NCBI RefSeq assembly: GCF_036013935.1
Contig: NZ_CP107902.1
Coordinates: forward strand, 1,054,001-1,118,000
DNA from: Streptomyces sp. NBC_00461
Lineage (GTDB): Bacteria > Actinomycetota > Actinomycetes > Streptomycetales > Streptomycetaceae
Direction of reading: 5' to 3'
Length of the DNA stretch: 64,000 bases
A program made the position numbers and the translations under genes. Positions 2,148 through 61,215 of this stretch are shown piece by piece (the first letter of the stretch is position 1; each line of letters begins with the position of its first letter). Under the pieces are notes generated by a model. It was given only the letters and a program-made list of their open reading frames with translations, was not told the DNA's origin and searched no databases.

Positions 2148-2168
2148 ATACGGTAAGGGATTACCGTA
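2148..2168. promoter_or_regulatory. Operator-like inverted repeat (9-3-9)
   Basis: Arms ATACGGTAA and ATTACCGTA around GGG; the inner TACGGTAA / TTACCGTA pair is a perfect 8-base inverted repeat with a 4-base spacer. It lies upstream of the TetR gene. Similar elements with the same 9-3-9 layout occur at 12351, 18285, 50049 and 61195. Confidence 0.75.
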
Positions 2169-2519
2169 ACGCTGCCGCGACGGCTGGTCGACCGCCCCGG
2201 ACCACGTCGCCGCCTGCTGGTTCTCAGCGCGGTTCTGGTGAACCGGGTCGGAACGGGCACCTCACCCGCGATCCGTTCCGCCACGCGGCGGACGCTCGAC
2301 GAGTCGTCGGCGATTCCTGTGAGCAGCCGTCACCGCACCGCCTCGGCACCGGCCTTCCGCCCGGGGAACGAACAGCATCAGCCTGACCCGCGCCCGACCG
2401 ACGATCTCGAGCAGCACCACGATGGTGTCGGCCCCGCGTCACGGCCCCTCCGACAGCTGCACCGCGCCGTTGTCCCTCCGATCAGCCGGTGGTAGCTTAC
2501 CGAAATCATTCCCGGAACC

Positions 2520-2541
2520 TTTACCGGATAGAATACCGGTA
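2520..2541. promoter_or_regulatory. Degenerate operator-like repeat
   Basis: TTTACCGGA, TAG, AATACCGGT, with a complete TACCGGTA palindrome at 2534-2541. It sits about 125 bases before the enoyl-CoA hydratase start. It is related by eye to the TTACSGTAA elements but differs at key positions, so the assignment is weak. Confidence 0.35.
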
Positions 2542-2666
2542 GAGCACGCGCCTGGCCGCCGCAGTCCCGCAACCGACTGTATGCCGGCGCCACACCACCG
2601 GCGGAAGACGGTCGGGCCGCCGGGCCGGACACCCTTCAGCGAAACACCCACCAAAAGGCGGTCGAG

Positions 2667-3434
2667 ATGGATCTGCTCCGACGTCGTGAAGGCTCTGCCG
2701 AGGTCATCACACTCAACCGCCCCGACCAGCGCAACGCCCTCAGCCCCGGCCTGATCGCCGAACTCTCGCGGGCGCTGCGTGACTGCCTGGACGACGACGC
2801 GGTACGCGCGGTGGTGCTGACCGGTGCCGGCGACCGGGCGTTCTGCGCCGGCATGGACCTCAAAGCGTTCGCCTCCGGTTCCGATTCCTCCGGGCCGGAG
2901 TCCGACAACACGCATTTCACGATGTTCAGCCGAGGCGAGTACCCCAAGCCCGTCATCGGTGCCGCCAACGCCACCGCCGTCGCCGGAGGGTTCGAGCTCC
3001 TGCTCAACTGCGACATCGTCGTCGCCTCCGACAAGGCCAGGTTCGGCATCCCGGAGGTCAAGCGCGGCCTGTTCGCCGCCGGCGGCGGAACCACGCTGCC
3101 CGGCCGCATCCCCCTCGCGATCGCTCTCGAACTCGGGCTGACCGGAGATCTGATCGACGCCGAGCGCGCGTGTGCGCTGGGGCTGGTCAACTGTGTCGTT
3201 CCAGCCGGAGACGTGGTCGGCGCCGCGTTGGAGTTCGCCCGCCGTATCGGCGAGAACGGCCCGCTCGGCGTCCTCGCGACGAAGAAGCTCATGCGCGTGA
3301 CGCTCACCGAAGGCGTCGCCGCGGCGCGCGCGGCGCAGGAAGCCGAAAACTCCAAGGTGTTCAAGAGCGAGGACGCGCTCGAAGGGGCTCGCGCCTTCGC
3401 GGAGAAGCGCGCACCGCAGTGGAAGGGCCGGTGA
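2667..3434 (+). CDS. Enoyl-CoA hydratase/isomerase family protein
   Basis: Crotonase-fold enzyme of 255 residues, the usual length, expected to hydrate or isomerise an enoyl-CoA. The oxyanion-hole segments are visible as FCAGMDLKAF (about residues 60-70) and AVAGGFELLLNCDIVVAS (about 100-120), followed by FGIPEVKRGL, which carries the position of a catalytic glutamate. The ATG at 2667 follows AAAAGGCGG. A hairpin terminator begins one base after the stop, so the gene is probably monocistronic and controlled from the divergent region shared with the TetR gene. The exact substrate is unknown. Confidence 0.93.
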   Translation: MDLLRRREGSAEVITLNRPDQRNALSPGLIAELSRALRDCLDDDAVRAVVLTGAGDRAFCAGMDLKAFASGSDSSGPESDNTHFTMFSRGEYPKPVIGAANATAVAGGFELLLNCDIVVASDKARFGIPEVKRGLFAAGGGTTLPGRIPLAIALELGLTGDLIDAERACALGLVNCVVPAGDVVGAALEFARRIGENGPLGVLATKKLMRVTLTEGVAAARAAQEAENSKVFKSEDALEGARAFAEKRAPQWKGR

Positions 3435-4704: not shown

Positions 4705-4725
4705 GTACTATATACCTTACGGTAT
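4705..4725. promoter_or_regulatory. Operator-like element before the ligase operon
   Basis: Right arm TTACGGTAT (4717-4725) is identical to the arm at 12363 and 50061; the left arm GTACTATAT is degenerate. ATACC-TTAC-GGTAT is also a small palindrome. It lies about 100 bases before the small-protein gene at 4822, where an operator for the ligase operon would be expected. Confidence 0.6.
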
Positions 4726-4821
4726 GGGTGATGCGGCATCCCTTCCAGACGGCCCCGGCCGCTCTGCGGGACGGACGGCATCAGCAGTGCCCAAGCAATG
4801 CCCGTCGCCGAGGAGGACGAT

Positions 4822-5121
4822 ATGAGTTTGCAGGTCGGCAACCGGCTGCGCGGACAGAACTCGACGTGCGAAGTCATCGTCGTCAAGGGTTCCGCCAGCC
4901 CCGCGGTATTGATGTGCGCCGGCGCGGAGATGCGCACGACGGCCCCCGATCCCCCCGCCCCACAGGTGAGCGACGGCCCACCGATCCAGCTCGGCAAGCG
5001 GTACACGGACGACGCCAGCGGCATCGAGGTGCTGTGCACCAAGGCCGGAATCGGCCCTTTGACCTTCGGCGACAGCCAACTCACGCAGAAGGCAGCCAAG
5101 GCGCTGCCGGCGTCCGACTGA
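4822..5121 (+). CDS. Small desulforedoxin-like protein, unknown function
   Basis: 99 residues from ATG 4822, which follows GAGGAGG; an upstream in-frame ATG at 4798 lacks a comparable site. The protein has two similar halves: VGNRLR...CEVIVVKG...VLMCAGAEM and LGKRYTDD...IEVLCTKAG...GPLTF. By eye each half resembles the small desulforedoxin/desulfoferrodoxin N-terminal fold, but only three cysteines remain (C16, C32, C72) instead of the four needed for an iron site, so metal binding is doubtful. It ends 16 bases before the acyl-CoA ligase and is almost certainly co-transcribed with it. Small proteins of this kind are, from memory, seen beside ligases in other actinomycetes; the function is not known to me. 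Confidence 0.75.
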   Translation: MSLQVGNRLRGQNSTCEVIVVKGSASPAVLMCAGAEMRTTAPDPPAPQVSDGPPIQLGKRYTDDASGIEVLCTKAGIGPLTFGDSQLTQKAAKALPASD

Positions 5122-5137
5122 ACGGACCGCACCCGCG

Positions 5138-6661
5138 ATGAACCTCACGATGCTCCTCGACATGGTGGTCGAGGGGATGCCCGACCGGATCCTCATCGGT
5201 GACCGCACGGACGGCCTCACCGCCCGCGAACTCGCCCGACGGGCGCGCTCGGGCGCGGATCTCGTCCGGGCCGCCGATGCCGGCACCGTCGTCTACCTCG
5301 GCGGCAACGGTCCCGCGTTTCCGGTCGCCCTGTTCGCCGCGGCCTCCGCCGGCGTGCCGTTCCTGCCGGTCAACTACCGGCTGAGCGACGAGCAGCTGGA
5401 CGACGTCCTCGGCCGCCAGGCCAGGCCGCTCGTGATAACCGACTCACCCGAGCGGGTCCGGGGCATGGCGGCCGTGACGCTGGAGGAGTTCGCCGGACCG
5501 ACGGCCGTTGCCGCCGATCACGAAACCGAGCCCGCCGACCCGGACCCCGACTCGATCGCCGTGCTGCTGATGACGAGCGGGACGACCGCCGCCCCGAAGA
5601 GCGCGGTACTGCGGCACCGGCACCTGACGTCCTACATCTTCGGCTCCGTCGAGTTCGCGTCGGCCGAGCAGAGCGACGCGACCATCGTCAGCGTGCCGCC
5701 CTACCACATCGCCGCCGTCGCGAACCTGCTCTCCAACCTGTACGCCGGTCGCCGGATCGTGTATCTCGACCACTTCAGCGCCGCCGACTGGCTGCATCGC
5801 GTCCGGACCCAGGCCGTCACGCACGCGATGGTGGTGCCGACGATGCTCGTGCGCATCGTCAGCGAACTCGTCCACTCCGGCGTGCGGGGCCCTTCGACGC
5901 TGCGGTCGATGTCGTACGGCGGCGCGAAGATCGCCGTACCCGTGCTCGTGGAGGCGCTGCGGCTCTTTCCCGGCACCGGTTTCGTCAACGCCTACGGCCT
6001 CACCGAGACCGCCTCCTCCATCGCGGTGCTGGGACCGGACGACCACCGTACGGCCGCCGCGAGCGACGATCCCGCCGTGCGCGCGAGACTGGGGTCGGTG
6101 GGCCGTGCGCTGCCCAGCGTGGAGATCGAGGTCCATGCCCCGGACGGGCTGCCGTGCCCTCCCGGCGTGGTGGGAGACATCGTCGTACGCGGCCCGCAGG
6201 TCGCCGGTGAATACCTGGAGGCCGGCAGCCGGCTGGACAGCGCCGGCTGGTTCCCCACCCGTGACCGCGGCCATATCGACGAGGACGGCTTCATCTTCGT
6301 CGAGGGCCGGTCCGACGACACCATCATCCGCGGCGGCGAGAACATCGCCCCATCGGAGATCGAGAGCGTGCTCACCGAGCACGAATGGGTGGCGGACGTG
6401 GCCGTGGCCGGCATCCCGGACGACGAATGGGGGCAGCGCATCGGCGCGTTCGTCGTCGTCCAGCCCGGCGTGCGGCCGGACGCCGACGTCCTGCGCGAGT
6501 TCGTCCGCGGCCGACTGCGCAGCTCGAAGACCCCCGACGACATCGTCTTCCTGCCGGAACTCCCGACCACGCCGACGGGCAAGGTACTGCGCCGCAAGCT
6601 GGTCGCGGACATCGACAAGGACACCGGGGCCTCCGAGTCCACCAGGACACCCGTGCTCTAG
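5138..6661 (+). CDS. Acyl-CoA synthetase (AMP-forming ligase)
   Basis: 507-residue member of the adenylate-forming family, which activates a carboxylic acid with ATP and CoA. The phosphate loop reads MTSGTTAAPKS, which differs from the common SGTTGxPKG. Also visible are YGLTETAS, the hinge region DRGHIDEDGFIFVEGR, the GGENIAPSEIE motif and the C-terminal TPTGKVLRRKL with the catalytic lysine. It is the second gene of an operon with the small protein at 4822 and the 3-hydroxyacyl-CoA dehydrogenase at 6687. It likely feeds the pathway controlled by the element at 4705. The acid substrate is unknown. Confidence 0.94.
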   Translation: MNLTMLLDMVVEGMPDRILIGDRTDGLTARELARRARSGADLVRAADAGTVVYLGGNGPAFPVALFAAASAGVPFLPVNYRLSDEQLDDVLGRQARPLVITDSPERVRGMAAVTLEEFAGPTAVAADHETEPADPDPDSIAVLLMTSGTTAAPKSAVLRHRHLTSYIFGSVEFASAEQSDATIVSVPPYHIAAVANLLSNLYAGRRIVYLDHFSAADWLHRVRTQAVTHAMVVPTMLVRIVSELVHSGVRGPSTLRSMSYGGAKIAVPVLVEALRLFPGTGFVNAYGLTETASSIAVLGPDDHRTAAASDDPAVRARLGSVGRALPSVEIEVHAPDGLPCPPGVVGDIVVRGPQVAGEYLEAGSRLDSAGWFPTRDRGHIDEDGFIFVEGRSDDTIIRGGENIAPSEIESVLTEHEWVADVAVAGIPDDEWGQRIGAFVVVQPGVRPDADVLREFVRGRLRSSKTPDDIVFLPELPTTPTGKVLRRKLVADIDKDTGASESTRTPVL

Positions 6662-6686
6662 CAGCACCCGAAGACAAGGAGTGCGC

Positions 6687-7538
6687 GTGGAGTTCAAGAC
6701 ACTCGCGATAGTCGGCCTCGGCACCATGGGGGCCGGTATCGCGCAGACGGCCGTTTCCCTCGGCTTCGACGTGGTCGGCGTCGAGCGGGACGAGCAGGCC
6801 GTAGTGGCAGGTCGGGCACGGGTCGCCGCCGGGCTGGCGAAGTTCGTCGAGAAGGGGAAGTTCACCGGGGAACAGGCAGCCCAGGCACTGGCCCGCCTGC
6901 GCACCTCCACGGACCGGGCGGACATCGCCGGAGCCGACATCGTGATCGACGCGGCGTTCGAGGACGTCGACCTCAAGCGTGAGCTCTTCCGCGACTTCGA
7001 GCGCCACGCCTCTGCCACCGCGGTCCTCGCCTCGAACACCTCGACGATCCCGCTCGTGATCATGGCGGCCGAGACGTCCGCCCCCGAGCGGGTCGTCGGC
7101 CTGCACTTCTTCAACCCGGTCCCCCTCATGGACCTGGTGGAGGTCATCCGCACCCCGGCGACGAGCGAGGAGACCGTCCGGGCCGCCGTCGATCTGTCGA
7201 AGGCCCTCGGAAAGTCCCCGGTCATCATCAAGGACGTGCCCGGCTTCATCGGCAACCTGCTCGTCGTGCCGTTCCTCCTGGACGCCATCCGCGCCTTCGA
7301 GCGCGGCGTGGCCTCGATGGAGGACATCGACTCGGTCCTCAGGCTCGGCTTCAACCACCCGATGGGACCCTTCAGGCTCAGCGACCTGATCGGCCTGGAC
7401 ATCGTCCAGGACATGGCCGAGCGCATGTACGAGGAGTACCGCGATCCCAAATACTGGCCCCCGCCGCTGCTCAAGCAGTACGTACGGATGGGTTGGCTGG
7501 GCCGGAAGACCAAGCGCGGTTTCTACACGTACGACTGA
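6687..7538 (+). CDS. 3-hydroxyacyl-CoA dehydrogenase (3-hydroxybutyryl-CoA type)
   Basis: 283-residue soluble NAD-dependent dehydrogenase of the short 3-hydroxybutyryl-CoA dehydrogenase type. The Rossmann loop GLGTMGAGIAQ is at the N-terminus, the catalytic HFFNPVPLMDLVEV motif is in the middle, and the C-terminal dimer domain ends in GRKTKRGFYTYD. GTG 6687 is preferred because AAGGAG lies 5 bases upstream; GTG 6681 overlaps that site. The gene follows the ligase by 25 bases in the same operon. It would oxidise the 3-hydroxyacyl-CoA made by a hydratase such as the one at 2667. Confidence 0.93.
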   Translation: MEFKTLAIVGLGTMGAGIAQTAVSLGFDVVGVERDEQAVVAGRARVAAGLAKFVEKGKFTGEQAAQALARLRTSTDRADIAGADIVIDAAFEDVDLKRELFRDFERHASATAVLASNTSTIPLVIMAAETSAPERVVGLHFFNPVPLMDLVEVIRTPATSEETVRAAVDLSKALGKSPVIIKDVPGFIGNLLVVPFLLDAIRAFERGVASMEDIDSVLRLGFNHPMGPFRLSDLIGLDIVQDMAERMYEEYRDPKYWPPPLLKQYVRMGWLGRKTKRGFYTYD

Positions 7539-7804: not shown

Positions 7805-8290
7805 CAGGTGCAGCGCGGCCTGCGCCTACAGGCGCCCCATGAAGACCCTGGGTCTTCCGCGAACCATCGCCCGCAGCAGTCCGGCGGGAGCCGCCGCGCA
7901 GCCGGGCGGCAACGTGTTCTGCTCGCGGACGGCCGGCTGAACGAATTCTGGCTGTTCGTGCGAAGCACGCCCGCACCGGTGAACCGGGAACCGCGCGCGG
8001 AGTTCGTTCTGCGCTGGGGCCGCGAGCTCTACCACGCCGACTTCAGACCCAGCGTCGCTTGGGAGCTGAACTACACAAGTGCCGACTGGGGCCGGATTCT
8101 CGGCAAACGGCAACGGCTCCTCTATGCGGCCGTCCGGCATGCCGTCGACCATCCCGACCTCGATGTCGAAGACCGCCCGCGCCTGCTGCGCCTGCTGCGG
8201 CGGTGTGCGGGATTCGACGAGTACACCATCGCCCGACACGCCCGTGTTCGACTCAACGTGACGGCTGCGGACCGTCCGTGACCCGTTCCC
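7805..8290 (+). pseudogene. Unassigned decayed coding stretch
   Basis: The + frame ending with TGA at 8281 has protein-like composition over its last ~100 codons (for example RPSVAWELNYTSADWG and LLRRCAGFDEYTIARH), without a start codon or ribosome binding site that fits. No family was recognised. It stops just before an IS5-like transposase relic, so it is probably the tail of a gene truncated during IS movement. Confidence 0.3.
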
Positions 8291-9442: not shown

Positions 9443-10264
9443 TTGACCAGTATCACCTACACCGCAACACTCGACGTCGGCAGGGAGACCGCCGAGACTC
9501 TCGCCCAGCTCTTGCGCAAGCACCGGGAACGGCTCGGCACCCGCAGGGGGACCCGCGCTCTGGGCGTCTAGCAGGGTATCCTGGTGCTGCGGTGGTTCGT
9601 CGACGGGACCCGGCTGGCCCAACTCGCCCGGGACAACGGGGTCTCGGTGCCCACCGCGTACCGCTACGTGCACGAAGGGCTGACCGTGCTCGCCGACCAC
9701 GCCCCGGATCTGTGCACCGCGCTGGAACGGGCGGCGGCCGCCGGCTACACCCATCTCAACCTGGACGGCACCGTCACCCGTACTGACCGCGTCGCCGCCC
9801 CCGGCCCCAAAGGCGCCGACCTCTGGTGGTCCGGGAAGCACAAGCACCACGGCGGCAACGTCCAGGTTGTCTCCGCCCCCGACGGCTGGCCGATCTGGGT
9901 CTCCCCGGTCCGCCCCGGCCGCGAGCATGACACCACCTGCGCCCGCACCCACGGCCTGGTCGACGCCCTCAACCGGCTCGCCTCCACCCTGGACATTCCC
10001 ACCCTGACAGACCTCGGCTACGAGAACGCCGGCGACGGCTTCCGCCACCCGGTCAAGAGGCCCAACGGCAGCGAACTCGACGACGAGCAGCAGGCATTCA
10101 ACTCGGTCATCCGAGGCGTCCATGCGGTCGCCGAGCGGGCCAACGCCCTGCTCAAGGTCACCTTCAAGGCCCTGCGCCGGGTCAGCCTCGACCCCAGCGG
10201 CATCACCCGGATCGCCCGAGCCGCCCTCGTCCTGCTCCAGCTGGAACACGGCCGCACCGCCTGA
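9443..10264 (+). pseudogene. IS5-family transposase, copy 2, with internal amber
   Basis: DDE transposase (DDE_Tnp_4-like, IS5 family) read from TTG 9443. The N-terminal part ends RGTRALGV, then an in-frame TAG at 9569-9571 interrupts it, and the frame continues with LRWFVDGTRLAQLARDNGVS (helix-turn-helix), LNLDGTVTRTD, GREHDTTCAR and the conserved C-terminal ERANALLKVTFKALRR. The right terminal sequence near 10290-10312 (GTTACCGAGAAGGGTTCAAT) matches that of copy 1; the left end could not be defined. Translation could only restart at 9584 or so without the first 45 residues, so activity is doubtful. Confidence 0.85.
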
Positions 10265-10989: not shown

Positions 10990-11365
10990 GGGCGGCAGCG
11001 GGCGGGGACTTCTGCAGCGGAGGCGACCTGGCCGAGTCCGACACCGGGCCCGACCCGGTCCGCTCGCATGCGATGAGTACCGCCGGGAGCACCGCCGCAC
11101 TCCTGGCCCGGTTGTCCGGACGTTCATCGGCGCGGGGATCGCAGTGCCGTCCTTCGCCTCCCTGGTCCCGGCCGATCCCGACATCCGCGTCCGGCTGCCC
11201 GAGATCGCGATGGGGCTGATCCCCGGCGCGGGCGGCACGGTCCGGCTCGTCGCCGGGCCGGGCGGTGGCGCACCGCGTTCCTGGCCCGTGCTCGACGCGC
11301 CCTGGAGTGGGGCCCGGTGGACGAGATCAGGCTCCACACGGGTAGCGCGCTCATCCGGCCGGCAG
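10990..11365 (+). pseudogene. Enoyl-CoA hydratase fragment
   Basis: Recognisable pieces of a crotonase gene in changing frames: FCSGGDLAESDTG near 11012, then ADPDIRVRLPEIAMGLIPG and AGGTVRLV near 11170-11250, then ALEWGPVDEIRL after a further frameshift near 11265. The first ~60 residues and the C-terminal third are missing. It converges on the VOC gene that starts at 12265. It is clearly non-functional. Confidence 0.8.
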
Positions 11366-12265
11366 GGCCCGCCGGTCGATCCACTCCAGCGGCAGGCCGA
11401 GCGTGCTCGCGGGATCCGTCCACGCCTGAGGCCCCGCACGCTCGACGACCGTCACGCCCTCGTCCTCCAACTGTCCCAGTGCGGTGTCGAGTTCGTCCAC
11501 CACGAGGCACACGCCGTGCAGCCGCTCGCCGTGCCGCTCCAGGGCCTCGGCGTACCGACTGCGGCCGCTGAGGGGTGACACGAGGCGTACCGTCACGCCG
11601 CCGATGCGTAGATCGACGGAGTCCTCGTGTTGCCCGACCGGGTGTCCCGGAGCCGGTGCCATCTCCATGAGCGAGGCGAGCAGCTCCGCGCTCTTTCGGG
11701 CGTCGCGCACGGTCACCGTCAGCCAGGCGACACCCCGTACGTCGACGAGTCCCGGCCGGCCGTCGACCGTCGGCTCGCCGCCGCGTGAGTCGTCGACGAA
11801 CTCGCTGTCCGTCCACTCGACCAACAGCCCCGATGTGTCCGCCGGATGCATGAAGAAATGCCGCCCCGGCACATCAGCCCCGGTGATCCGTACATTCCTG
11901 CGCCGCAGCAGCGTCTCCGCCGCCCACAGGTCGTCGATCGTCCAGGCGACCGAGTGCAGCCCGGGACCGTAGCGCGCTACGTAGCGCCCCAGCGGCCCCG
12001 AGGCGGCCGTCGCCGTGAACAGCGCGACGGGGTCCTGGCCGAGCCGCAGGAGCTGGATGTCGACACCCGACTCCTGCCAGTGGTTGCCGTCCTGGGTGTC
12101 TATCGGGAGGCCGTGCACCTGACGCGTCCGTACCTGGAGCGGCCGGGCCCCGAGCACGCGGCGCAGCCACGCGTCCATGTGCTGGCGGGGCTCGCATGCG
12201 ATGCCCAGTCGATGGAAGTGCCCGGGTCGTACCACCGGAGTTCCCACGATCGGTGCAGCGTTCAT
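11351..12265 (-). CDS. Two-domain VOC family protein
   Basis: 304 residues made of two vicinal-oxygen-chelate domains: the first has HFHRLGIACEP near the start and GLHSVAWTIDDLWAAE then HFFMHPADTSGLLVEW; the second has GVAWLTVTVRDARKSAELL and LHGVCLVVDELDTAL ending LGLPLEWIDR. The HFFMHP....EW segment has the pattern of lactoylglutathione lyase, methylmalonyl-CoA epimerase or ring-cleavage dioxygenase relatives. ATG 12265 follows AAGGAGAGG. The operator-like element at 12351-12371 lies about 90 bases upstream, so it should belong to the common regulon. The reaction is unknown. Confidence 0.85.
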   Translation of the reverse strand: MNAAPIVGTPVVRPGHFHRLGIACEPRQHMDAWLRRVLGARPLQVRTRQVHGLPIDTQDGNHWQESGVDIQLLRLGQDPVALFTATAASGPLGRYVARYGPGLHSVAWTIDDLWAAETLLRRRNVRITGADVPGRHFFMHPADTSGLLVEWTDSEFVDDSRGGEPTVDGRPGLVDVRGVAWLTVTVRDARKSAELLASLMEMAPAPGHPVGQHEDSVDLRIGGVTVRLVSPLSGRSRYAEALERHGERLHGVCLVVDELDTALGQLEDEGVTVVERAGPQAWTDPASTLGLPLEWIDRRALPAG

Positions 12266-12350: not shown

Positions 12351-12371
12351 ATACCGTATTGCTTACGGTAT
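12351..12371. promoter_or_regulatory. Operator-like inverted repeat (9-3-9)
   Basis: Arms ATACCGTAT and TTACGGTAT around TGC; 8 of 9 positions pair. This is one of the best copies of the island-wide element. It lies between the minus-strand VOC gene and the decayed MFS gene on the + strand and could serve both. Confidence 0.78.
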
Positions 12372-16956: not shown

Positions 16957-16970
16957 AAATACAGAAAACC

Positions 16971-16991
16971 GTACGGTAATTAGTACTGCAT
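16971..16991. promoter_or_regulatory. Operator-like element
   Basis: GTACGGTAA, TTA, GTACTGCAT. The left arm matches the island-wide element; the right arm is degenerate. It lies directly upstream of the dead acyl-CoA ligase at 17080-17486, suggesting the ligase was once regulated like its neighbours. Confidence 0.55.
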
Positions 16992-17800: not shown

Positions 17801-18277
17801 ACGGTCCTCGGCTCATCCAGGCGGCATCCCCGGCCACGCCGGCACCGGGCAGGGGGAGTTGGTGTTGCAGTCTGCCGCCTGCACAGACCACCAGGGCCGG
17901 AACTCTCAATCCGGGGCAGCGGCGACACCGTGAACACCAAGCGGGCCATCCACGGTGCGGTGGCCGGCGGCGTGGTGTGGGCGTTCACCTGTCGTCGCAC
18001 ACCAGCGACTCCCCCTCGCCGCACCCGATCCCCCTGGCTCCCGCCGGGAATGACGCCAAGACCGGCTCTCAGCTCCATCCAGAATGGCGCTCAACAGTCT
18101 GACCCGCCACCAGCACGACCCCGACGTGCGGGATACCCCCCTACGGTTTGCCGGCGTCCTCCGTGTCCGCGAACAAGGCGTCCGCGGCCACGGCGAGCTC
18201 TTCGACATCGGCCGACACGGGGCTCACCAGCACAGGAGGCGAGTGCCTTGTCGGCTTGCGGGATTGACTCACAGTGG
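17801..18277. other. Intergenic, nothing assigned
   Basis: About 480 bases with only arginine- and proline-rich shadow frames on the + strand. A minus-strand stretch ending near 18135 (LVSPVSADVEELAVAADALF) looks protein-like but is too short to place in a family. Confidence 0.4.
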
Positions 18278-18284
18278 TACGGTA

Positions 18285-18305
18285 GTGCCGTAATGCTTAC
18301 GGTAA
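18285..18305. promoter_or_regulatory. Operator-like inverted repeat (9-3-9)
   Basis: Arms GTGCCGTAA and TTACGGTAA around TGC, the same spacer as at 12351 and 61195. It lies 180 bases before the amidohydrolase start and is followed without a gap by tandem 12-base repeats. Confidence 0.75.
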
Positions 18306-18331
18306 TACTTACTGAAAAACTTACTGCAAAC
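18296..18331. repeat. Three tandem 12-base repeats CTTACNGNAANA
   Basis: CTTACGGTAATA, CTTACTGAAAAA and CTTACTGCAAAC follow each other exactly, each beginning CTTAC. The first unit is the right arm of the 9-3-9 operator element. One helical turn is about 10.5 bases, so 12-base phasing could allow adjacent protein binding. The repeats lie in the amidohydrolase leader region. Confidence 0.65.
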
Positions 18332-18484: not shown

Positions 18485-19420
18485 ATGGCCACACCCACAT
18501 CGGGCCGGCTCGATGTTCATCATCACGTGATTCCCCCCGCTTTCGAACGTTTCGCGGGCCCGTCTACGCAGTGGTCGGCCGCGTCCACGCTGTCGTGGAT
18601 GGACGATCACCGTGTCGCCGCAGCGGTGATGTCAGTGTCGGCGCCAGGTCTCCCGTCCGCTGCCGACGAAGGCGGTCCCCGACTGACCCGGGAAATCAAC
18701 GAGTTCACCGCAGAACTGGTCAAGAACCGCCCGGACCGGTTCGGACATTTCGCCAGCCTGCCCATGGCTGATCACGATCCCGCCAGCGTGCTCGATGAGG
18801 TCGGCTACGCCTTCGACACCCTGCAGGCAGACGGGGTGGTGCTGATGTCCAACGCCGTCGGCATATACCTCGGCGACCGGCTGTGGGAACCGGTTTGGGA
18901 AGAACTCGATCGTCGCCAGGCCGTGGTCTTCATCCACCCCACGGCCACCGGACTCCGACCCCTCCACGGCCTTAGCCCAGCGGTGGTCGATTTCCCGTTC
19001 GACACTGCTCGTACCGCCGTCGACCTTGTGGTTTCCGGAGTGATGCACCGCCATCGGCACGTCAAGGTCATCCTGTCCCATGCGGGCGGATTCCTGCCCT
19101 ACGCGGCACAGCGCTTCGCCGGAATCATCCCGGTTCTCAGCTCGCCGAAGTCCACTCCGACGGCCCCCGACGCCATCCTGGCCGGCCTCAAACGCTTTTA
19201 CTTCGACACCGCCTTGTCGACCGGCCACGACGCCCTGAAATTGCTGGCCTCGTTCGCTGAACCCGGCCACGTGCTCTACGGCAGCGACTGGCCCTACGCC
19301 GGCACTGCAGGAACCGCATACTTCAATCATCTCCTGGACACCGCCGACCTCACCCAATCCGACCGCGAGGCGATCGAACACCGCAACGCCGAACTCCTCT
19401 TCCCTCGATTCGCCACCTGA
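18485..19420 (+). CDS. Amidohydrolase family protein (ACMSD/decarboxylase-like)
   Basis: 311-residue TIM-barrel metal enzyme of the amidohydrolase-2 type, which includes aminocarboxymuconate semialdehyde and gamma-resorcylate decarboxylases. Metal-ligand positions are visible: DVHHHVIPP at the start, FIHPTA in the middle, LSHAGG and the final YGSDWPYAGT aspartate. ATG 18485 follows GAGAGGAAG. A strong terminator follows the stop, and an operator-like element plus tandem repeats precede it, so it is probably a single-gene unit under the island regulator. Decarboxylation or hydrolysis of an aromatic acid is plausible but unproven. Confidence 0.9.
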   Translation: MATPTSGRLDVHHHVIPPAFERFAGPSTQWSAASTLSWMDDHRVAAAVMSVSAPGLPSAADEGGPRLTREINEFTAELVKNRPDRFGHFASLPMADHDPASVLDEVGYAFDTLQADGVVLMSNAVGIYLGDRLWEPVWEELDRRQAVVFIHPTATGLRPLHGLSPAVVDFPFDTARTAVDLVVSGVMHRHRHVKVILSHAGGFLPYAAQRFAGIIPVLSSPKSTPTAPDAILAGLKRFYFDTALSTGHDALKLLASFAEPGHVLYGSDWPYAGTAGTAYFNHLLDTADLTQSDREAIEHRNAELLFPRFAT

Positions 19421-34975: not shown

Positions 34976-34986
34976 CGCTGTCACCG

Positions 34987-49090: not shown

Positions 49091-49870
49091 TCACGGCCGC
49101 AAGGACTCGGACTGGATCAGCATCGTCTGCGCGAGACGATCGATGTCCCGGGCCGTTCGCCGATCCACCTCGGACGCCGCGTCGATCGCAAGCTTGGCCA
49201 GACCGAGCGCCTCGGCCGGCAACGCAGCCAGCTTGCGTGCGAACTCGTCAACATCGCGGTCGAAGGTCTCGGACGGGTACACGGCATGCACCAGTCCGAT
49301 GTCCGTCGCAGCGGAGGCATCCACCAAGGCGTCCGTCATGACCAGCCACTTGGCCCAGTGGGTTCCGAGCAACCGCGTCAGCCGGCTTATCCCGCCGGAG
49401 CCTGGAATCATCGCCAGCTTTGCTACTTCCGGCAGACGGAAACTGGCTGCCTCCGACGCCAGCCGGAAGTCACACGACACCGCCATTTCGACGCCGATGC
49501 CCATGCAGGGCCCGTTGGCAGCCAGGATCACCGGCTTCTCGACCATCTCCAGCCGGTCGAACAGGTCGTGCCGAGCGTCTGCCCGGTACCTGCGCCGAAA
49601 GTCGTATCCGCTCCGCGAGGCGTCGCCGCCTGGATCCACCGTCGCGCCGACCGTCAAGATGTCGATACCGGCGGTGAAGTACCGGCCGCGGCCGCGGATG
49701 ACCAGGACTCTGAGGTCTGCGCGCTGTTCGAGCTGAATGACGGCAGCGTCGAGCGCATCGAACATCGCCGGCGTGATGGCGTTCAGCTTGGCGTCACGAC
49801 AGAACGTCACATTAATGATTCTTTCGGACTCCGAAACCTCGACGTCCGACAATGAGCTGTCATCCACCAC
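49091..49870 (-). CDS. Enoyl-CoA hydratase/isomerase family protein
   Basis: 259-residue crotonase-fold protein from GTG 49870, preceded by AAGGAG. IINVTFCRDAKLNAITPAMF, YFTAGIDILTVGATVDPGG, AANGPCMGIGVEMAVSCDFR and FRLPEVAKLAMIPGSGG are the fold and oxyanion marks; the PGSGG loop is typical of the branch acting on carboxylated or aromatic acyl-CoAs, though this is not decisive. An operator-like element lies 180 bases upstream (50049-50069), so it is probably in the island regulon. It stands alone downstream of the PucR regulator. Confidence 0.91.
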   Translation of the reverse strand: MVDDSSLSDVEVSESERIINVTFCRDAKLNAITPAMFDALDAAVIQLEQRADLRVLVIRGRGRYFTAGIDILTVGATVDPGGDASRSGYDFRRRYRADARHDLFDRLEMVEKPVILAANGPCMGIGVEMAVSCDFRLASEAASFRLPEVAKLAMIPGSGGISRLTRLLGTHWAKWLVMTDALVDASAATDIGLVHAVYPSETFDRDVDEFARKLAALPAEALGLAKLAIDAASEVDRRTARDIDRLAQTMLIQSESLRP

Positions 49871-50336
49871 TGCCTGTGCTCCTTCGTACGGGTGCCCTGC
49901 ACCACTGGGGTCTCAGGTACTTCACACGTGCACGGACGGGGAGGATCGAGCTCGATCGTCCCTGGCCGGCGCTGCGACGAGCGCCGGACGCATCGCAGTT
50001 TGGCGTCCTCAGGAATCGTCTGCTCCTCCTCCAGGTCTCCCAACGAGTATGCCGTAAGTCTTACGGTATAACTATCGGGAAGGGCTGTCGCCACCCCAGA
50101 ACTCCCTCGTGGGCGCACAGTTTTCTCCCGGCCTGACCGAACGGGCCCTCGTCATCAGCGAGGCCGCAGCGGCTGAGCACACGCTCGCTGCTGCTCGCAT
50201 CAGGCGATACACCGAGCGCGCGTCCTTCGCGGGCTCAACGCAGGAGAGTCGACCCACGAGATTTTTCGGGATTGGGCGCGCCCGCATACCGACGCGACGA
50301 ACTGGTTCGGCACTCGCGCCGTAGCCGTGGCTGACC
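49871..50336. other. Promoter region of the hydratase gene
   Basis: 466 bases without a recognised gene. It holds the 9-3-9 operator-like element at 50049-50069. The open frames crossing it are short and low in quality. Confidence 0.55.
50049..50069. promoter_or_regulatory. Operator-like inverted repeat (9-3-9)
   Basis: Arms ATGCCGTAA and TTACGGTAT around GTC; 8 of 9 positions pair. It is 180 bases upstream of the hydratase at 49870 and 268 bases downstream of the PucR stop. Confidence 0.78.
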
Positions 50337-51500: not shown

Positions 51501-51653
51501 GCCGAAACAATACGGGCTTCGTGGGTTCTGCCGTAGCTTCCGCCGAGTGGCGTTCTCGACAATATGGGTGAGATCCCGAAGTGCGGCAGGTTTGCCGCTG
51601 TCTCCCGCGCTGCTTGTCGGGCAGCGCCGGAGCCTGAGCAGTCAGGAACTGAC

Positions 51654-54600: not shown

Positions 54601-55121
54601 CCGAACGGGCGGTGGGAGTCGCCACGGCCTTCAGCGAGCAGGTCGCGCGCAACTTCTACAAGCTCGCCGCCTACAAGGACGAGTACGAAGTCGCGCGGCT
54701 CCTGACGGCGCCGGACGCGCTGGCCGCCGTTCATGCCGAGGCTGGGCCTGGGAAACTCCGGTTCAACCTGCACCCTCCGACCCTGCGCGCCCTCGGCTTG
54801 GGCAAGAAGATCCAGCTCGGTCCCTGGTTCCACCCAGTGATGCGGCTGCTCGCGACACTCAAGTTCGTCCGGGGCCACTGGTTCGACCCTTTCGGTCACA
54901 CCGCTGTACGACGACTTGAGAGGAGGCTGGTGAGCGAATACGCGGCAGTGGTGCAGGAGTTGACCACGTCGCTCTCGCCGACCACCTACGAGATCTCGAC
55001 CCGGATCGCGGCCCTGCCGGACACGGTGCGGGGTTATGAGGACGTCAAGGTCAAGAACGCCGAGGCCTACGAGTTCGAGCTCCGCGCACTCCGAGCCGAG
55101 CGGCAGGGGCTGGCCTCGTGA
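51654..55121 (+). CDS. Indolepyruvate:ferredoxin oxidoreductase, fused alpha-beta
   Basis: 1155-residue single-chain 2-oxoacid:ferredoxin oxidoreductase, the type found in aerobic bacteria, which converts aryl- or branched 2-oxoacids to acyl-CoA with TPP and FeS clusters. The N-terminal pyrimidine-binding region begins SLLTGVQAIARALIELRARD; the TPP domain has FCSGCPHNTSTVVPDGSVAG then GGIGCHTL and GGEGAQWIGQA. The FeS part is INPEVCEGCGDCGVKSNC, TSCNSDYSCLRGDCPSF; the C-terminal gamma domain starts VFMAGIGGTGIVTVSQVIAT. ATG 51654 is used (AGGAAC upstream). The stop overlaps the next gene (GTGA), so amino acid to 2-oxoacid to acyl-CoA is a plausible sequence. Confidence 0.92.
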   Translation: MTVAMHDRAAPDPAAYRLEDRYEVGGGRSLLTGVQAIARALIELRARDAARGRDVAVFVSGYQGSPLGGLDSLLESIPRLRENHRIHLTPGVNEELAATSVWGTQLPLPDDKRTVDGVVGVWYGKGPGLDRASDAIRHANMYGTDPGGGVVAFVGDDPSSKSSTLPYASDATLAALNMPFFTPRNAEEVILHTLAAVELSRFSGCWVGVKVLSDVADGMWTVARDFQSLEFERPLVEWEGRPWTYAQRPVRTPSESLRVESDLVGPRWAAAESFLAANDLDTVRPATAPAVLGIMGSGTAIDAAVQAFRDLGVDHEALSRGGIRLMDVAAPYPLARERVAAFADGLEKILVVEEKSPVIERQIKDLLYAHPDRPAIVGKRDESGAVLVPADGELVAERLYGPVRRFVGDRVQFTSRPARRVTLDLLSVQRTPYFCSGCPHNTSTVVPDGSVAGGGIGCHTLASVSSRQDSAITGWTQMGGEGAQWIGQAAWSSHRHIFQNVGDGTFFHSGQLAVQAAIAAGVNITYKVLYNSAVAMTGAQDPQAALPVPALSRKLLAEGVTRIVVCADEPERYRRIRMPRGSVVWPRERLDEAQRLLRDVEGVTVLVYDQQCAANARRMRKRGKLEPRPTRVVINPEVCEGCGDCGVKSNCLSVQPVETELGRKTSIEQTSCNSDYSCLRGDCPSFVTVTDAPTPTKRRSKRTVPTAPKVPDLDVELTDSNVFMAGIGGTGIVTVSQVIATAAMSAGYEVRGLDQTGLSQKAGPVVSHLRLVVDADAPANRVSEQAADLYLAFDLLVAADAKNAARTGTEKTMVIASTSATPTGDMVADASITYPDTDLLLERLRGGSKRVVDFDALALAEGLFGSIQTANLLLVGAAYQAGSLPIPAQAIEAAITLNGVAVDTNIAAFRWGRAIVADPGSLPTRAETAKKDPSSRTQEALEASGIEGETLRITTDRATRLESYQGTALARSYVGVVARAWSAERAVGVATAFSEQVARNFYKLAAYKDEYEVARLLTAPDALAAVHAEAGPGKLRFNLHPPTLRALGLGKKIQLGPWFHPVMRLLATLKFVRGHWFDPFGHTAVRRLERRLVSEYAAVVQELTTSLSPTTYEISTRIAALPDTVRGYEDVKVKNAEAYEFELRALRAERQGLAS

Positions 55122-56218
55122 CCGCGCGAGATCTCACCAGCCACGATGCGAACTCGTCCGTGCTCGAGGCCATGAGCGATGCCGACAGCCCTCACGAGCA
55201 GGTCATCTACTGCAACGACCCGGAGTCGGGGCTGAGGGCGATCATCGCCATCCACTCGCTCGCGTTGGGGCCTGCGGTCGGGGGCTGTCGCTTCCTGCCG
55301 TACGACGACGAAGCGAGTGCGCTGGCCGACGTCCTCCGGCTATCGCGTGGGATGACCTACAAGGCGGCCGCTGCCGGGCTCGACACGGGCGGGGCCAAGG
55401 CCGTCATAATCGGCGACCCCAGTCGCGACAAGACCCCGAAGTTGCTCGAGGCGTTCGGCAGGTTCGTCGACCGCCTCGGAGGCAGCTACTCCACCGCGGG
55501 CGACGTCGGCACCGACTCCGACGACATGGACATCATCGGCCGCGCCACCCGCCACGTCGCCTTCCGCAACACCGGCCGCGGTGGATCCGGTGACAGCGGC
55601 AGCAACACAGCGCTCGGGGTCTTCCAGGGCATTCTCGCCGCGGCTGACCACCGGTGGGGTTCGCCCGAGCTCCGTGGCCGACACGTCGGCGTCGAGGGGC
55701 TGGGAAAGGTCGGCTTCCAGCTGGCCGTGATGCTGCACGAGGCGGGCGCCAAGGTGACGGCAGCGGACCCGTCCGAGTTGGCCCGCGCCAAGGCGACATC
55801 GGCTGTTCCCGATCTGCCGATCGTCGAGTCCGTCCGTGAGCTGCGGACGGACGTGTACGCACCCTGCGGACTGGGCGGCACCCTCGACCACGACCTCGCC
55901 AGGCGAATCGAGGCCGAGATCGTCTGCGGAGGCGCGAACAGCCAGTTGGCCTCGTCTGACGTGGCGGAGGTCCTTCTCCGGGCCGGAGTGACCTGGGTCC
56001 CTGACTTCGTCGCGAACGTGGGTGGACTGATCCAGGCGGTGGCTGAGCTGCGTGGGGAGATTCCTGCTTCGGCGCGGGAGCGCGTGCTCGGAGTCCGAGC
56101 AACGGTGCTCGACATCCTGGAGGACGCCGGCGCAGCCGGGTCCACCACGCTCCATGCCGCCGAGGTCAGGGTTGAGCGACGTCTCGCTGCTGCCCGCTCT
56201 CGCCGGAGCGCCGTCTAA
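55118..56218 (+). CDS. Glu/Leu/Phe/Val dehydrogenase
   Basis: 366-residue NAD-dependent amino acid dehydrogenase. GPAVGGCRFLPYDDEASALA and GMTYKAAAAGLDTGGAKAVI contain the substrate-binding and catalytic lysine region; YSTAGDVGTDSDDMDIIGRA and VGVEGLGKVGFQLAVMLHEA (Rossmann loop) follow. The size fits the leucine/phenylalanine/valine dehydrogenase group, and GLDTGGAKAV departs slightly from the common PLGGGKAV. GTG 55118 overlaps the previous stop; ATG 55172 is an alternative. It would feed 2-oxoacids to the fused oxidoreductase, giving amino-acid-derived acyl-CoAs. Confidence 0.9.
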   Translation: MTARDLTSHDANSSVLEAMSDADSPHEQVIYCNDPESGLRAIIAIHSLALGPAVGGCRFLPYDDEASALADVLRLSRGMTYKAAAAGLDTGGAKAVIIGDPSRDKTPKLLEAFGRFVDRLGGSYSTAGDVGTDSDDMDIIGRATRHVAFRNTGRGGSGDSGSNTALGVFQGILAAADHRWGSPELRGRHVGVEGLGKVGFQLAVMLHEAGAKVTAADPSELARAKATSAVPDLPIVESVRELRTDVYAPCGLGGTLDHDLARRIEAEIVCGGANSQLASSDVAEVLLRAGVTWVPDFVANVGGLIQAVAELRGEIPASARERVLGVRATVLDILEDAGAAGSTTLHAAEVRVERRLAAARSRRSAV

Positions 56219-58690: not shown

Positions 58691-59971
58691 TCAGCGCCCG
58701 TGCCGGACCTGGTTGAAGGGGACGTCGCGGTCGGCGGCGTACTCGCGGGGCATTCCGAGGATCCGTTCGCTGATGATGTTGCGTGCCATCTCGGTGCTGC
58801 CGCCGCCGAGCTGCTCGGCCTGGCGGAACAGGAAGGACACGCCCACCTCGCGGGTGTCGGGCCCGTCGGGGGCGGACATCGCGGCGGCCGGGCCGGCGAG
58901 TTCGAGTGCGATCTCTGCCTGGCGGGTGGCGCTCTCGCCGTGGAAGAGGCGGATGAGCGAGCCGGCGGCGGGAGGCATCTTCTGCGTGCGCATGCCCGCG
59001 GTGACCCGGTCGACGAGATGCCCGTGGATGACGCCGAGGGCGTGCGCCTCGGCGATCAGCTCCCGCGCGTAGGGGTCGTCCGCCCGGCCGGTTCGGCGGA
59101 CCAGGTCGATGAGCGGATCGGTCTCCGTGCCGCGCCGCCCTTCGGCCCGCGCGCCGCTGAAGTACGGTGAGCCGCCGCCGACGGCGTTGCGCTCGTGGAA
59201 CAGCTGGCGCGAGGCGACCGCCCAGCCGCCGCCCACCTCGCCGACCACCGCGGAGGCCGGGACGACGACGTCGTCGAAGAACTCCTGGCAGAACTCGTCG
59301 CCGCCGTTGACCTGCTTGATGCGTTCGATGTGCACACCAGGCTGATGCACCTTCATCAGGAACATCGTCAGTCCCCGGTGCTTGGGCGCGTCCCAGTCGG
59401 TGCGGGCCAAGCACAGCGCGTAGTCGGCGGCGTAGGCGCCCGAGCTCCAGATCTTCGAGCCGTTGAGGACGAACACGTCGCCGTCGCGCTCGGCGCGGGT
59501 CGTCCCTCCGGCGAGGTCGGAGCCGCCGCCCGGTTCGGACAGGAACTGCACGAGCACCTCGTCACCGCGGATCGCGGCGGCCAGGTGCTCACGCCTCTGC
59601 TCCTCGCTGCCCATGTCGAGGATGGTCGGGCCGCAGATGGTGAACGTCGGCACATTCAGCAGCATCGGCATCTCGTAGTCGGTGACCTCCTCGTTGAAGG
59701 CGCGCTGGTGCGCGGGGGTGAGGCCGAGACCGCCGTACTCCTCGGGGTAGCAGATTCCGGCGAAGCCACCCTCGTACAGCGTGCGTTGCAGGACACGGGC
59801 CCGCTGCCAGGCGCTCTGGTCGCTCGACACGTTCCTTTGCGCACGTTCGTCGGCGGGCAGGTCGGCCAGGCGCCGCAGGTTCGCCGGGATCCACTCGCGG
59901 GCCCGCAGGCGGAAGCTGTCGACGCTCTCCATGCCGGTAGCGTCGGACACGGCCGTCGTCGTCGCGGTCAT
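58691..59971 (-). CDS. Acyl-CoA dehydrogenase
   Basis: 426 residues from ATG 59971, preceded by GAGGAG. YPEEYGGLGLTPAHQRAFNE, FLSEPGGGSDLAGGTTRAER, VLNGSKIWSSGAYAADYALC are the FAD- and substrate-binding regions; EQLGGGSTEMARNIISERIL is the C-terminal catalytic-helix segment. It lies 12 bases after a second acyl-CoA dehydrogenase on the same strand, and such pairs often form alpha2beta2 FadE heteromers in actinomycete steroid and terpenoid catabolism. The unit is preceded by the operator-like element at 61195. Confidence 0.93.
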   Translation of the reverse strand: MTATTTAVSDATGMESVDSFRLRAREWIPANLRRLADLPADERAQRNVSSDQSAWQRARVLQRTLYEGGFAGICYPEEYGGLGLTPAHQRAFNEEVTDYEMPMLLNVPTFTICGPTILDMGSEEQRREHLAAAIRGDEVLVQFLSEPGGGSDLAGGTTRAERDGDVFVLNGSKIWSSGAYAADYALCLARTDWDAPKHRGLTMFLMKVHQPGVHIERIKQVNGGDEFCQEFFDDVVVPASAVVGEVGGGWAVASRQLFHERNAVGGGSPYFSGARAEGRRGTETDPLIDLVRRTGRADDPYARELIAEAHALGVIHGHLVDRVTAGMRTQKMPPAAGSLIRLFHGESATRQAEIALELAGPAAAMSAPDGPDTREVGVSFLFRQAEQLGGGSTEMARNIISERILGMPREYAADRDVPFNQVRHGR

Positions 59972-59982
59972 CTCGAATCTCC

Positions 59983-61110
59983 TCAGACGTTCAGCAGATC
60001 GGCGATACGGCGGCGGTGCGCGGACGGCGTGCCCCACATGAGCCGGTTCACCGTCGCCCGGCGCAGGTAGATGTGGATGTCGTGCTCCCAGGTGACTCCC
60101 AGGCCGCCGTGCAACTGGACGCAGTCCTGGATGATGTCGGTGGCCCGCTGGCCGAGGTAGGACTTCGCGACGCTGACCAGCTCACCGGCGTCGGCCCGGC
60201 GCTCCTGCACCGCGCGGGCGGCGGCGGCCATCGTCGCCTGGCCGGACTCCGACCACAGCGTCATGTCCGCCATCCGGTGCTTGAGCTCCTGATAGGAGGC
60301 GAGCGGCCGGCCGAAGGAGTAGCGGTCGAACATCCACTGCCGGGTGAACTCCAGCACGCGCTCGACGACACCGACGAGTTCGGCGCACTGCAGCACGACG
60401 GCGAGCTGGAACTGGCGCTCGACGGCGGCCGCGGCACCGCCGGCCGCTCCCACGAGCGCGGTGGCCGGGACGCGTACGCCGGTGTAGTCGACGCGTGCGA
60501 AGCCGCGCACCATGTCGAGGCTCTCCAGCGGGAGGACGGACACGCCGTCCGCGTCGCGCTCGACGACGAACTGGCTCAGGCCCTCGGGGGTACGGGCGAG
60601 TACGAGGAACGCGTCCGCGTCGCCGCCGTGCTCGACGCCGTCGTGCGTGCCGTCGAGGACGTACCCGTCCCCGTCGGGCCGTGCCTCGATCGCGCCCGCT
60701 TCGGGGTCCCAGCCCCCTCCCGGCGCACAGCAGGCCCAGGCGGCGACCGTCGAGCCGTCGAGCAGCCTGCCGAGGAGTCCGGCGTGCCGGTCCGCTCCGG
60801 CCGCTTCGGCGAGGGCGGCGGCGACGACGTTGACCGCGGCGAGCGGTCCGGGCGCGCACCCGCGTCCGAACTGCTCGGCGATGAGCGTCGCGTCGACGAC
60901 CCCCTCGCCGGATACGCTGCCGCCGCCCGTCTCCTCCGGCACGACGAGCGACGTCCACCCCAGTTCCGCCCCGCGCTGCCAGGTGACCCGGTCGAACGTG
61001 CGGCCCTCGTCGTGCAACGCGCGGATCACACCGAGCGGGGCGGACTTCTCCAGGTAGTCCGCTGTCGCCGTCTGCAACAAGCGCTGGTCGGCGGTCAGTT
61101 CGAATCTCAT
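59983..61110 (-). CDS. Acyl-CoA dehydrogenase, partner subunit
   Basis: 375 residues. LQTATADYLEKSAPLGVIRA, VVPEETGGGSVSGEGVVDAT, DRYSFGRPLASYQELKHRMA and CVQLHGGLGVTWEHDIHIYL are typical; the expected GSD substrate loop of the first domain is poorly formed (VLDGTHDGVEHGGDADAF), as in the non-catalytic-looking member of heteromeric pairs. It is the first gene of this minus-strand unit; ATG 61110 is about 85 bases from the operator-like element at 61195. Pairing with the next gene is inference. Confidence 0.92.
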   Translation of the reverse strand: MRFELTADQRLLQTATADYLEKSAPLGVIRALHDEGRTFDRVTWQRGAELGWTSLVVPEETGGGSVSGEGVVDATLIAEQFGRGCAPGPLAAVNVVAAALAEAAGADRHAGLLGRLLDGSTVAAWACCAPGGGWDPEAGAIEARPDGDGYVLDGTHDGVEHGGDADAFLVLARTPEGLSQFVVERDADGVSVLPLESLDMVRGFARVDYTGVRVPATALVGAAGGAAAAVERQFQLAVVLQCAELVGVVERVLEFTRQWMFDRYSFGRPLASYQELKHRMADMTLWSESGQATMAAAARAVQERRADAGELVSVAKSYLGQRATDIIQDCVQLHGGLGVTWEHDIHIYLRRATVNRLMWGTPSAHRRRIADLLNV

Positions 61111-61194
61111 GACGGCACCTTGCCCTCCCGACGATGCACTGCGAAGCCGACGGCCATGGCGCCGGGGCTGCCTTGACCGGCAGTCTACACGCCA

Positions 61195-61215
61195 TTACGG
61201 TAATGCATACAGTAA
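61195..61215. promoter_or_regulatory. Operator-like element (9-3-9)
   Basis: TTACGGTAA, TGC, ATACAGTAA; the spacer TGC is the same as at 12351 and 18285. It lies between the acyl-CoA dehydrogenase pair (minus) and the decayed MoxR gene (plus). Confidence 0.65.

What the first reader, a model, noticed from the sequence alone, without database searches (positions are those of the whole stretch)
2148..61215. One operator element, two 9-base arms around 3 bases, repeated across the whole island
Near-identical elements lie at 2148, 12351, 18285, 50049 and 61195, with weaker ones at 4705 and 16971 and a doubtful one at 2520. All fit ATACCGTAA, n3, TTACGGTAT, and three share the spacer TGC. All lie in promoter positions: the TetR gene, the ligase operon, the VOC gene, the amidohydrolase, a hydratase and the acyl-CoA dehydrogenase pair. 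The core TTACSGTAA is itself palindromic. This implies one TetR-type regulator controlling modules up to 59 kb apart, although they look separately acquired. The TetR gene at 1250-2041 is the natural candidate because the first site sits in front of it.
Basis: partly seen in the sequence, partly recalled or inferred. Interest (0 to 1): 0.82.

Follow-up and report, generated by a model that had tools for sequence, protein, structure and literature searches.

The report
TetR operator marking a catabolic island
A short repeated DNA tag sits in front of many gene groups of one degradation island, clusters there rather than elsewhere in the genome, and travels with one family of TetR regulators across soil bacteria, so it is very probably that family's operator.

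Summary
The element is real and far beyond chance. Restated: the unit is the heptamer TACNGTA (centre base free), itself palindromic, repeated two to four times at 12-bp pitch; the 2148 copy has 13 bp. In the 10.37-Mb genome all 11 matches to TACNGTA-N5-TACNGTA with at most one mismatch lie in one 87-kb region reaching past both window ends. All 47 arrays scored here and in relatives lie in intergenic gaps. The genome has two close members of the 1250-2041 TetR clade, that gene and a 62% identical paralogue at window-relative 68457-69164; both lie in the island with the element upstream. In 12 clade genomes 50 of 56 whole-genome matches lie within 50 kb of a clade gene. Of 293 genomes of the order two carry the clade; the other 291 have 0-3 matches each, against 11 here. 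A Rhodococcus plasmid repeats the pattern. Best reading: this TetR clade represses the island through the element, and two paralogues probably share it. In two close relatives the 59-kb-apart modules are adjacent, so they need not be separate acquisitions. Binding is inferred, not shown. Three clade genomes lack the element near the gene.

The parts
1250..2041 (-). TetR1, proposed regulator (TetR_N + TetR_C_1)
   Evidence: Pfam PF00440 and PF02909; one of two close clade members in the genome
2136..2169 (.). operator array upstream of TetR1; two perfect units at 13-bp pitch plus a weak unit
   Evidence: the same exact 13-bp-pitch pair lies about 106 bp upstream of the orthologue in S. humidus and NRRL WC-3618
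2497..2541 (.). four-unit degenerate operator array upstream of enoyl-CoA hydratase
   Evidence: similar array in S. humidus
2667..3434 (+). enoyl-CoA hydratase, predicted target
   Evidence: Pfam ECH_1
4705..4725 (.). operator upstream of the ligase operon; a TTGACC-16-TACGGT pair overlaps it
   Evidence: equivalent promoters in pYLL1 and Arthrobacter
4798..7538 (+). predicted target operon: 107-aa protein, CoA ligase, 3-hydroxyacyl-CoA dehydrogenase
   Evidence: Pfam (none for the 107-aa protein), gene calls
11351..12265 (-). VOC/glyoxalase-family gene, predicted target
   Evidence: Pfam
12351..12371 (.). only site in the genome with 0 mismatches to WTACSGTAW-N3-WTACSGTAW
16959..16991 (.). 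three-unit operator array; downstream target not identified
18277..18329 (.). four-unit operator array plus an extra out-of-phase unit, upstream of amidohydrolase
18485..19420 (+). Amidohydro_2 family gene, predicted target
   Evidence: Pfam
49091..49870 (-). enoyl-CoA hydratase, predicted target
   Evidence: Pfam
50049..50081 (.). operator (two good units, third weak) upstream of 49091-49870
58691..61110 (-). acyl-CoA dehydrogenase pair, predicted target
   Evidence: Pfam
61195..61215 (.). operator in divergent promoter; a TTGACC-17-TACGGT pair on the + strand overlaps it
   Evidence: same promoter marked in S. humidus, pYLL1, Arthrobacter
61281..62141 (+). gene divergent from the acyl-CoA dehydrogenase pair; stands where pYLL1 has an annotated MoxR ATPase
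   Evidence: no Pfam hit here; position in pYLL1

Best explanation
The element is the operator of one clade of TetR-family regulators encoded inside the island. Homodimers (possibly heterodimers of the two paralogues) bind arrays of two to four TACNGTA units at 12-bp pitch in the promoters of the island's catabolic operons and of the regulator genes themselves, and block transcription. A pathway metabolite, by analogy with other catabolic TetRs probably an acyl-CoA or the substrate, releases them and the island is induced together. Shown by computation: element architecture, confinement to the island, promoter position, and co-occurrence with the TetR clade in distant genomes and on a plasmid. 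Inferred: binding, repression, ligand, sharing by both paralogues.
For: Own genome: 11 of 11 core sites (<=1 mismatch) in 0.83% of the genome, 20 of 20 with the longer pattern. Two close TetR paralogues, both in the island with the element upstream; next best match in the genome E=2e-7. Of 293 genomes of the order the clade occurs in 2 at E <= 1e-35; the core pattern is found 11 times here, 0-3 times in each other genome, and in the second clade genome (G015) both of its matches lie within 3 kb of the TetR gene. In 12 clade genomes 50 of 56 matches lie within 50 kb of a clade gene; of the reversed pattern in the same genomes and this one, 1 of the 75 listed matches does (95 in all, 20 not listed). 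A PWM from 17 own-genome sites finds >=12 bits in the ~300 bp upstream of the TetR homologue in 72 of 77 windows, against a mean of 0.25 (largest 3) with 40 column-shuffled PWMs. 47 of 47 arrays lie in gaps although 84% of the sequence is called coding; 46 of 47 within 350 bp upstream of a start (one place counted twice through overlapping loci). Rhodococcus plasmid pYLL1: 13 of 14 matches (<=2 mismatches) in the 48 kb holding the TetR and the same kinds of catabolic genes, at equivalent promoters. Recognition region VGVTS[ILV]YW[YH]FRKK in 80 of 80 loci. In 4 of 21 site-strand combinations a -35/-10-like pair has TACNGT as -10 (weak).
Against: No binding or expression data. Raw counts are not raised: reversed-pattern controls are 138 against 46 here at 2 mismatches, 91 against 56 in the 12 genomes and 19 against 14 on pYLL1; only the clustering is. 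74 of 291 clade-less genomes of the order have 1-3 matches, and one (G229) has two of them 12 bp apart. Clade retrieval used YWYFRKK and SLDQLSMP as search words, so helix conservation is partly selected for. In Amycolatopsis (G296) the two strong sites are 20-29 kb from the aligned TetR and those upstream of it are weaker. The 16959 array has no identified target, and TetR1's own site has 13-bp pitch.
Confidence: 0.87

Rival explanations
1. Only one paralogue (TetR1 or TetR2) binds these operators in vivo; the other has a different role or different sites.
For: They are 62% identical overall, so ligands or partners may differ. The pYLL1 plasmid shows a single clade place.
Against: HTH regions are near-identical and both genes have the element upstream, also in S. 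humidus and NRRL WC-3618.
Confidence: 0.35
2. Another regulator binds the element: the two-domain TetR at 19656-21023, the PucR-type gene at 50337-51500, the Trans_reg_C protein at 33728-34975, or an unlinked regulator.
For: These regulators lie in the window.
Against: All three lie in the 50-kb segment that S. humidus and NRRL WC-3618 lack at this place, while the elements outside it remain there. tblastn at E <= 1e-15 found no relative of the three in the 20 relative loci searched, which are not whole genomes. An unlinked regulator would not be expected to track the TetR clade.
Confidence: 0.04
3. The element is not an operator but a promoter element, for example a -10 box of a particular sigma factor.
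For: In 4 of 21 site-strand combinations TACNGT stands 16-17 bases from a -35-like hexamer.
Against: Units are symmetrical, repeated at 12 bp up to four times, and several stand between divergent genes; they track a TetR clade.
Confidence: 0.03
4. The regulator binds the element but acts as an activator.
For: Several arrays are over 100 bp from the next called start.
Against: Most TetR proteins are repressors (general knowledge); arrays in front of the regulator genes and over -10-like boxes fit repression.
Confidence: 0.08

Closest known systems
KstR and KstR2 (TetR repressors of steroid catabolic clusters in actinobacteria; recalled, not examined here)
   Same: Recalled as TetR repressors of catabolic gene clusters, induced by CoA thioesters, with similar kinds of genes (acyl-CoA dehydrogenases, thiolases, hydratases)
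   Different: Their operators are recalled as single palindromes of another sequence; here two to four TACNGTA units at 12-bp pitch. Sequence relation was not tested.
MbdR of Azoarcus (PMC4424350; abstract and passages seen)
   Same: TetR repressor of a catabolic cluster with several operators including its own promoter; ATAC/GTAT-ended palindrome; inducer an acyl-CoA
   Different: Operator ATACN10GTAT; here the outer ATAC and GTAT are 13 bases apart (12351) and an inner GTA/TAC pair is about equally conserved
TetR repressors of tetracycline resistance
   Same: Among the best matches in the PDB and NCBIfam searches, with engineered sulfonylurea repressors on top in PDB
   Different: NCBIfam score 64.6 against cut-off 265; different operator (recalled)
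MftR2 (NCBIfam NF038211)
   Same: Weak profile match
   Different: 35.3 and 47.1 bits against cut-off 285

Membership tests
TetR family regulator | TetR_N DNA-binding domain above Pfam cut-off | tested here: met
   38.3 bits against cut-off 24; TetR_C_1 30.9 against 21
TetR family regulator | binds a palindromic operator, usually near its own gene | tested here: inconclusive
   operator-like arrays upstream of both genes and in 72 of 77 windows upstream of homologues; binding itself not testable here
TetR tetracycline repressor (NF010319) | curated profile cut-off | tested here: not met
   64.6 and 63.6 of 265 bits
MftR2 (NF038211) | curated profile cut-off | tested here: not met
   35.3 and 47.1 of 285 bits
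MbdR-type operator | ATACN10GTAT | tested here: not met
   paper passages against the 12351 site with 13 bases between ATAC and GTAT
KstR/KstR2 | orthology and operator sequence | not tested
   recalled only
island-confined operator set | sites confined to one gene cluster and to promoters | tested here: met
   11 of 11 core sites in 0.83% of the genome; 47 of 47 arrays in gaps

The most novel reading that the evidence does not exclude
The island is run by two paralogous repressors that read one and the same phased-array operator, as separate homodimers or as heterodimers, so that two different pathway ligands would have to be present for full release: an AND gate. The operator acts as a portable tag that keeps a horizontally moving catabolic module set under one control in hosts from Streptomyces to Rhodococcus plasmids, and tagged operons gained or lost (such as those in the 50-kb segment) stay in the regulon.
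Probability: 0.35. Interest if true: 0.72.

Novelty: new variant of a known kind. Interest (0 to 1): 0.56.

Why it matters
It gives a precise, directly testable operator to a large TetR clade without a named function in the search listing (1420 homologues at E <= 1e-20, of which the best 120 were listed, with only generic names where any). The regulon of most clade members could be read off a genome by a simple pattern, it helps decide which of dozens of beta-oxidation-type genes form one pathway, and it offers an example of two paralogous regulators apparently sharing one operator set. The architecture, palindromic heptamers at 12-bp pitch in arrays of two to four, raises a concrete structural question: how TetR dimers pack on it.

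Tried and rejected
Tried: the literal 9-3-9 consensus (too strict). Estrogen catabolism as the island's substrate, prompted by a window gene of the indolepyruvate ferredoxin oxidoreductase family: one literature search (listing only); that gene stands beside a Glu/Leu/Phe/Val-type dehydrogenase and has no site directly in front of it, so the idea was dropped and the substrate left open. PDB sequence searches of three island enzymes showed acyl-CoA dehydrogenase, carboxyltransferase and CoA-ligase kin but no pathway. Eight literature searches bearing on the motif, the clade or such an operator (of ten made, the others being 31 and 66) listed no paper I could link to it; passages were read only in PMC4424350 and PMC12915292, and only openly licensed papers are held. 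A protein tree had long branches and is not relied on. The third-unit statistic (42% against 1-14% at control offsets) counts pairs, so longer arrays count more than once, and the 21-mers were picked by closeness to the unit. The binomial values treat sites as independent, which neighbours in one array are not. Insertion of the 50-kb segment here versus deletion in the relatives was not decided.

Full report
WHAT IS THERE. The window is positions 1,054,001-1,118,000 of a 10.37-Mb single-contig genome, very probably a Streptomyces: the TetR at 1250-2041 is 98% identical to a protein named for that genus, and S. humidus DNA matches at 95-97% over the cluster. The listed elements exist at the listed coordinates. 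The literal consensus gives 3 matches with up to 3 mismatches, against 0.00 expected.

A BETTER DESCRIPTION. Laid out in steps of 12 bases, the elements become tandem arrays of one palindromic unit, TACNGTA. Over 83 distinct 21-mers from this genome and relatives, picked by closeness to the unit, the twelve specified bases are kept at 72-99% and the centre base is free (T 48, G 48, C 37, A 33). The arms therefore have no orientation of their own. A third unit one step further on either side is present in 42% of pairs against 1-14% at other offsets, with longer arrays counted more than once. 18285 starts four units, 2497-2541 holds four degenerate ones, 16959-16991 three. 2148 is the exception, with perfect units 13 bp apart.

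GENOME-WIDE TEST. WTACSGTAW-N3-WTACSGTAW with up to 3 mismatches: 20 sites, all 20 within 87 kb (reversed-pattern control 8). TACNGTA-N5-TACNGTA: 3 of 3 exact and 11 of 11 with at most 1 mismatch lie in that region; 21 of 46 with up to 2, against 138 for the reversed control over the genome. So the raw count is not raised; the clustering is. Binomial values under even spread are 1e-23 for 11 of 11 and 1e-31 for 21 of 46, treating sites as independent. Sites continue outside the window at window-relative -398, 66235, 67513, 69231, 71947, 74003, 77761, 77877 and 86083. The 19.6-48 kb stretch has none above 12 bits; one 13-bit match at 56515 was not assigned.

POSITION. In this genome and 17 relative loci of my choice, 47 arrays scored at least 19 bits; 47 of 47 lie in gaps between called genes and 46 of 47 within 350 bp upstream of a start, while 84% of the sequence is called coding. 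Gene calls are my own script, one place is counted twice through overlapping loci, and S. humidus places are orthologous to own ones. Predicted targets in the window: TetR1, two enoyl-CoA hydratases, the ligase operon, a VOC gene, an amidohydrolase, the acyl-CoA dehydrogenase pair. Outside it, by call: a fused acyl-CoA dehydrogenase, OB-fold and thiolase-like genes, a thiolase, a VOC-type gene, an aldehyde dehydrogenase and a flavoprotein gene; by look of the sequence only: a P450-like gene at -329, an SDR at 67672 and a second aldehyde dehydrogenase at 84419. In 5 of 21 site-strand combinations a -35/-10-like pair overlaps the array, in 4 of them with TACNGT as -10, weak support for repression.

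WHICH REGULATOR. The genome has two close relatives of the 1250-2041 protein: itself and a 62% identical paralogue at window-relative 68457-69164; the next match has E=2e-7. Both genes have the element upstream. Their HTH regions are near-identical, and VGVTS[ILV]YW[YH]FRKK is present in 80 of 80 loci fetched (FRSK in G015), though retrieval by YWYFRKK biases this.

CO-OCCURRENCE. (a) Of 293 genomes of the order, 2 carry the clade at E <= 1e-35. In the same 293 genomes the core pattern (at most 1 mismatch) occurs 11 times here and 0-3 times in each other; 74 of the 291 clade-less genomes have 1-3 matches, one of them (G229) with two matches 12 bp apart. In the second clade genome both of its matches lie within 3 kb of its TetR gene. 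(b) I chose 12 clade genomes (11 of the 80 loci, plus G015): 50 of 56 matches lie within 50 kb of the TetR gene (contig of G296 confirmed by length). The reversed pattern in these and the own genome has 95 matches, 75 of them listed, of which 1 (G298) lies within 50 kb. (c) A PWM made only from 17 sites of this genome scores >=12 bits upstream of the homologue in 72 of 77 windows (80 loci, three left out as duplicate or too short); 40 column-shuffled PWMs give a mean of 0.25 and at most 3, and random windows of the same loci 37 of 770. (d) Rhodococcus plasmid pYLL1 carries a 50.5% identical TetR and much the same kinds of catabolic genes; 13 of 14 matches (at most 2 mismatches; reversed control 19) lie in its first 48.2 kb of 393 kb, among them sites in front of the TetR, the hydratase pair, thiolase/SDR, succinate-semialdehyde dehydrogenase/3HCDH, MoxR/acyl-CoA dehydrogenases, the ligase and the OB-fold/CaiB genes. 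Side-by-side promoters from this genome, pYLL1 and Arthrobacter share the units and little else.

RESULTS AGAINST. L070, L079 and L088 carry the clade with the same helix but no upstream site, and 1, 2 and 0 matches genome-wide, none on the TetR contig by length. In two metagenome bins some matches lie on other contigs than the TetR (G307 2 of 4, G308 6 of 9). In G296, G299, G300, G301 and G303 together six matches lie elsewhere. L043 and L044 have sites 1.1-1.5 kb away rather than in the 300-bp window.

SEPARATE MODULES? In S. humidus and NRRL WC-3618 window -7984..7918 adjoins 58003..79147 with about 0.5 kb between. The 50-kb segment between them is missing there; here it carries transposases and the sites 12351, 16959, 18285 and 50049. 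So the 59-kb distance is not the only arrangement. A hydratase from the segment (16132-16956) has an 80% relative at the end of a clade locus that also carries sites (L042), so part of the segment may be old regulon material; insertion or deletion was not decided.

MECHANISM. Most likely an island-specific TetR repressor pair acting on phased arrays, released by a pathway metabolite. Architecture, confinement, promoter position and co-occurrence are shown by computation; binding, sign of action, ligand and sharing by the two paralogues are inferred. The catabolic substrate is unknown; gene content resembles CoA-dependent breakdown of a ring or branched compound (inference).

KNOWN OR NEW. Catabolic TetR repressors with local regulons are well known (KstR, KstR2 recalled; MbdR, PMC4424350, abstract and passages seen). 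The clade has 1420 homologues at E <= 1e-20, the best 120 listed with only generic names where any, and eight literature searches listed no paper I could link to this operator. I rate it a new variant of a known kind.

Noticed in passing
7918-58003: A 50-kb segment absent from the same place in S. humidus and Streptomyces sp. NRRL WC-3618; carries a DDE transposase (9584-10264) and an IS110-type transposase (45310-46083).
   Followed up: partly
19656-21023: A single 455-aa protein with two TetR_N stretches, a different regulator type inside the element-free stretch.
   Followed up: no
50337-56218: PucR-type regulator, indolepyruvate ferredoxin oxidoreductase family protein (1155 aa) and a Glu/Leu/Phe/Val dehydrogenase, possibly an amino-acid catabolic unit within the segment.
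   Followed up: no
33728-37027: A Trans_reg_C protein beside a FAD-dependent aromatic-ring hydroxylase family protein.
   Followed up: no
L157 / L158 (Rhodococcus sp. YL-1 plasmid pYLL1, 1-48 kb): A linear plasmid carries much the same kinds of catabolic genes with the TetR and 13 element matches; also transporters and a mycofactocin-coupled SDR, hinting at the pathway.
   Followed up: partly
L070, L079, L088: Mycobacterial clade TetRs with the same recognition helix but no element around them; what they bind is open.
   Followed up: partly
L025:36-2183 (-): A 715-aa protein with two fused acyl-CoA dehydrogenase halves, matching among others the separate Tcur3481 and Tcur3483 chains in PDB.
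   Followed up: no
L039 contig (Amycolatopsis sp. GM8): Three clade TetR proteins named for this strain share the same longest contig length (P0007, P0009, P0025), suggesting further multiplication of the regulator.
   Followed up: no
L162 (G229:C73:46001-50000): A clade-less genome of the order has two core matches 12 bp apart at C73:47770 and 47782, an array without the TetR clade; not examined.
   Followed up: no
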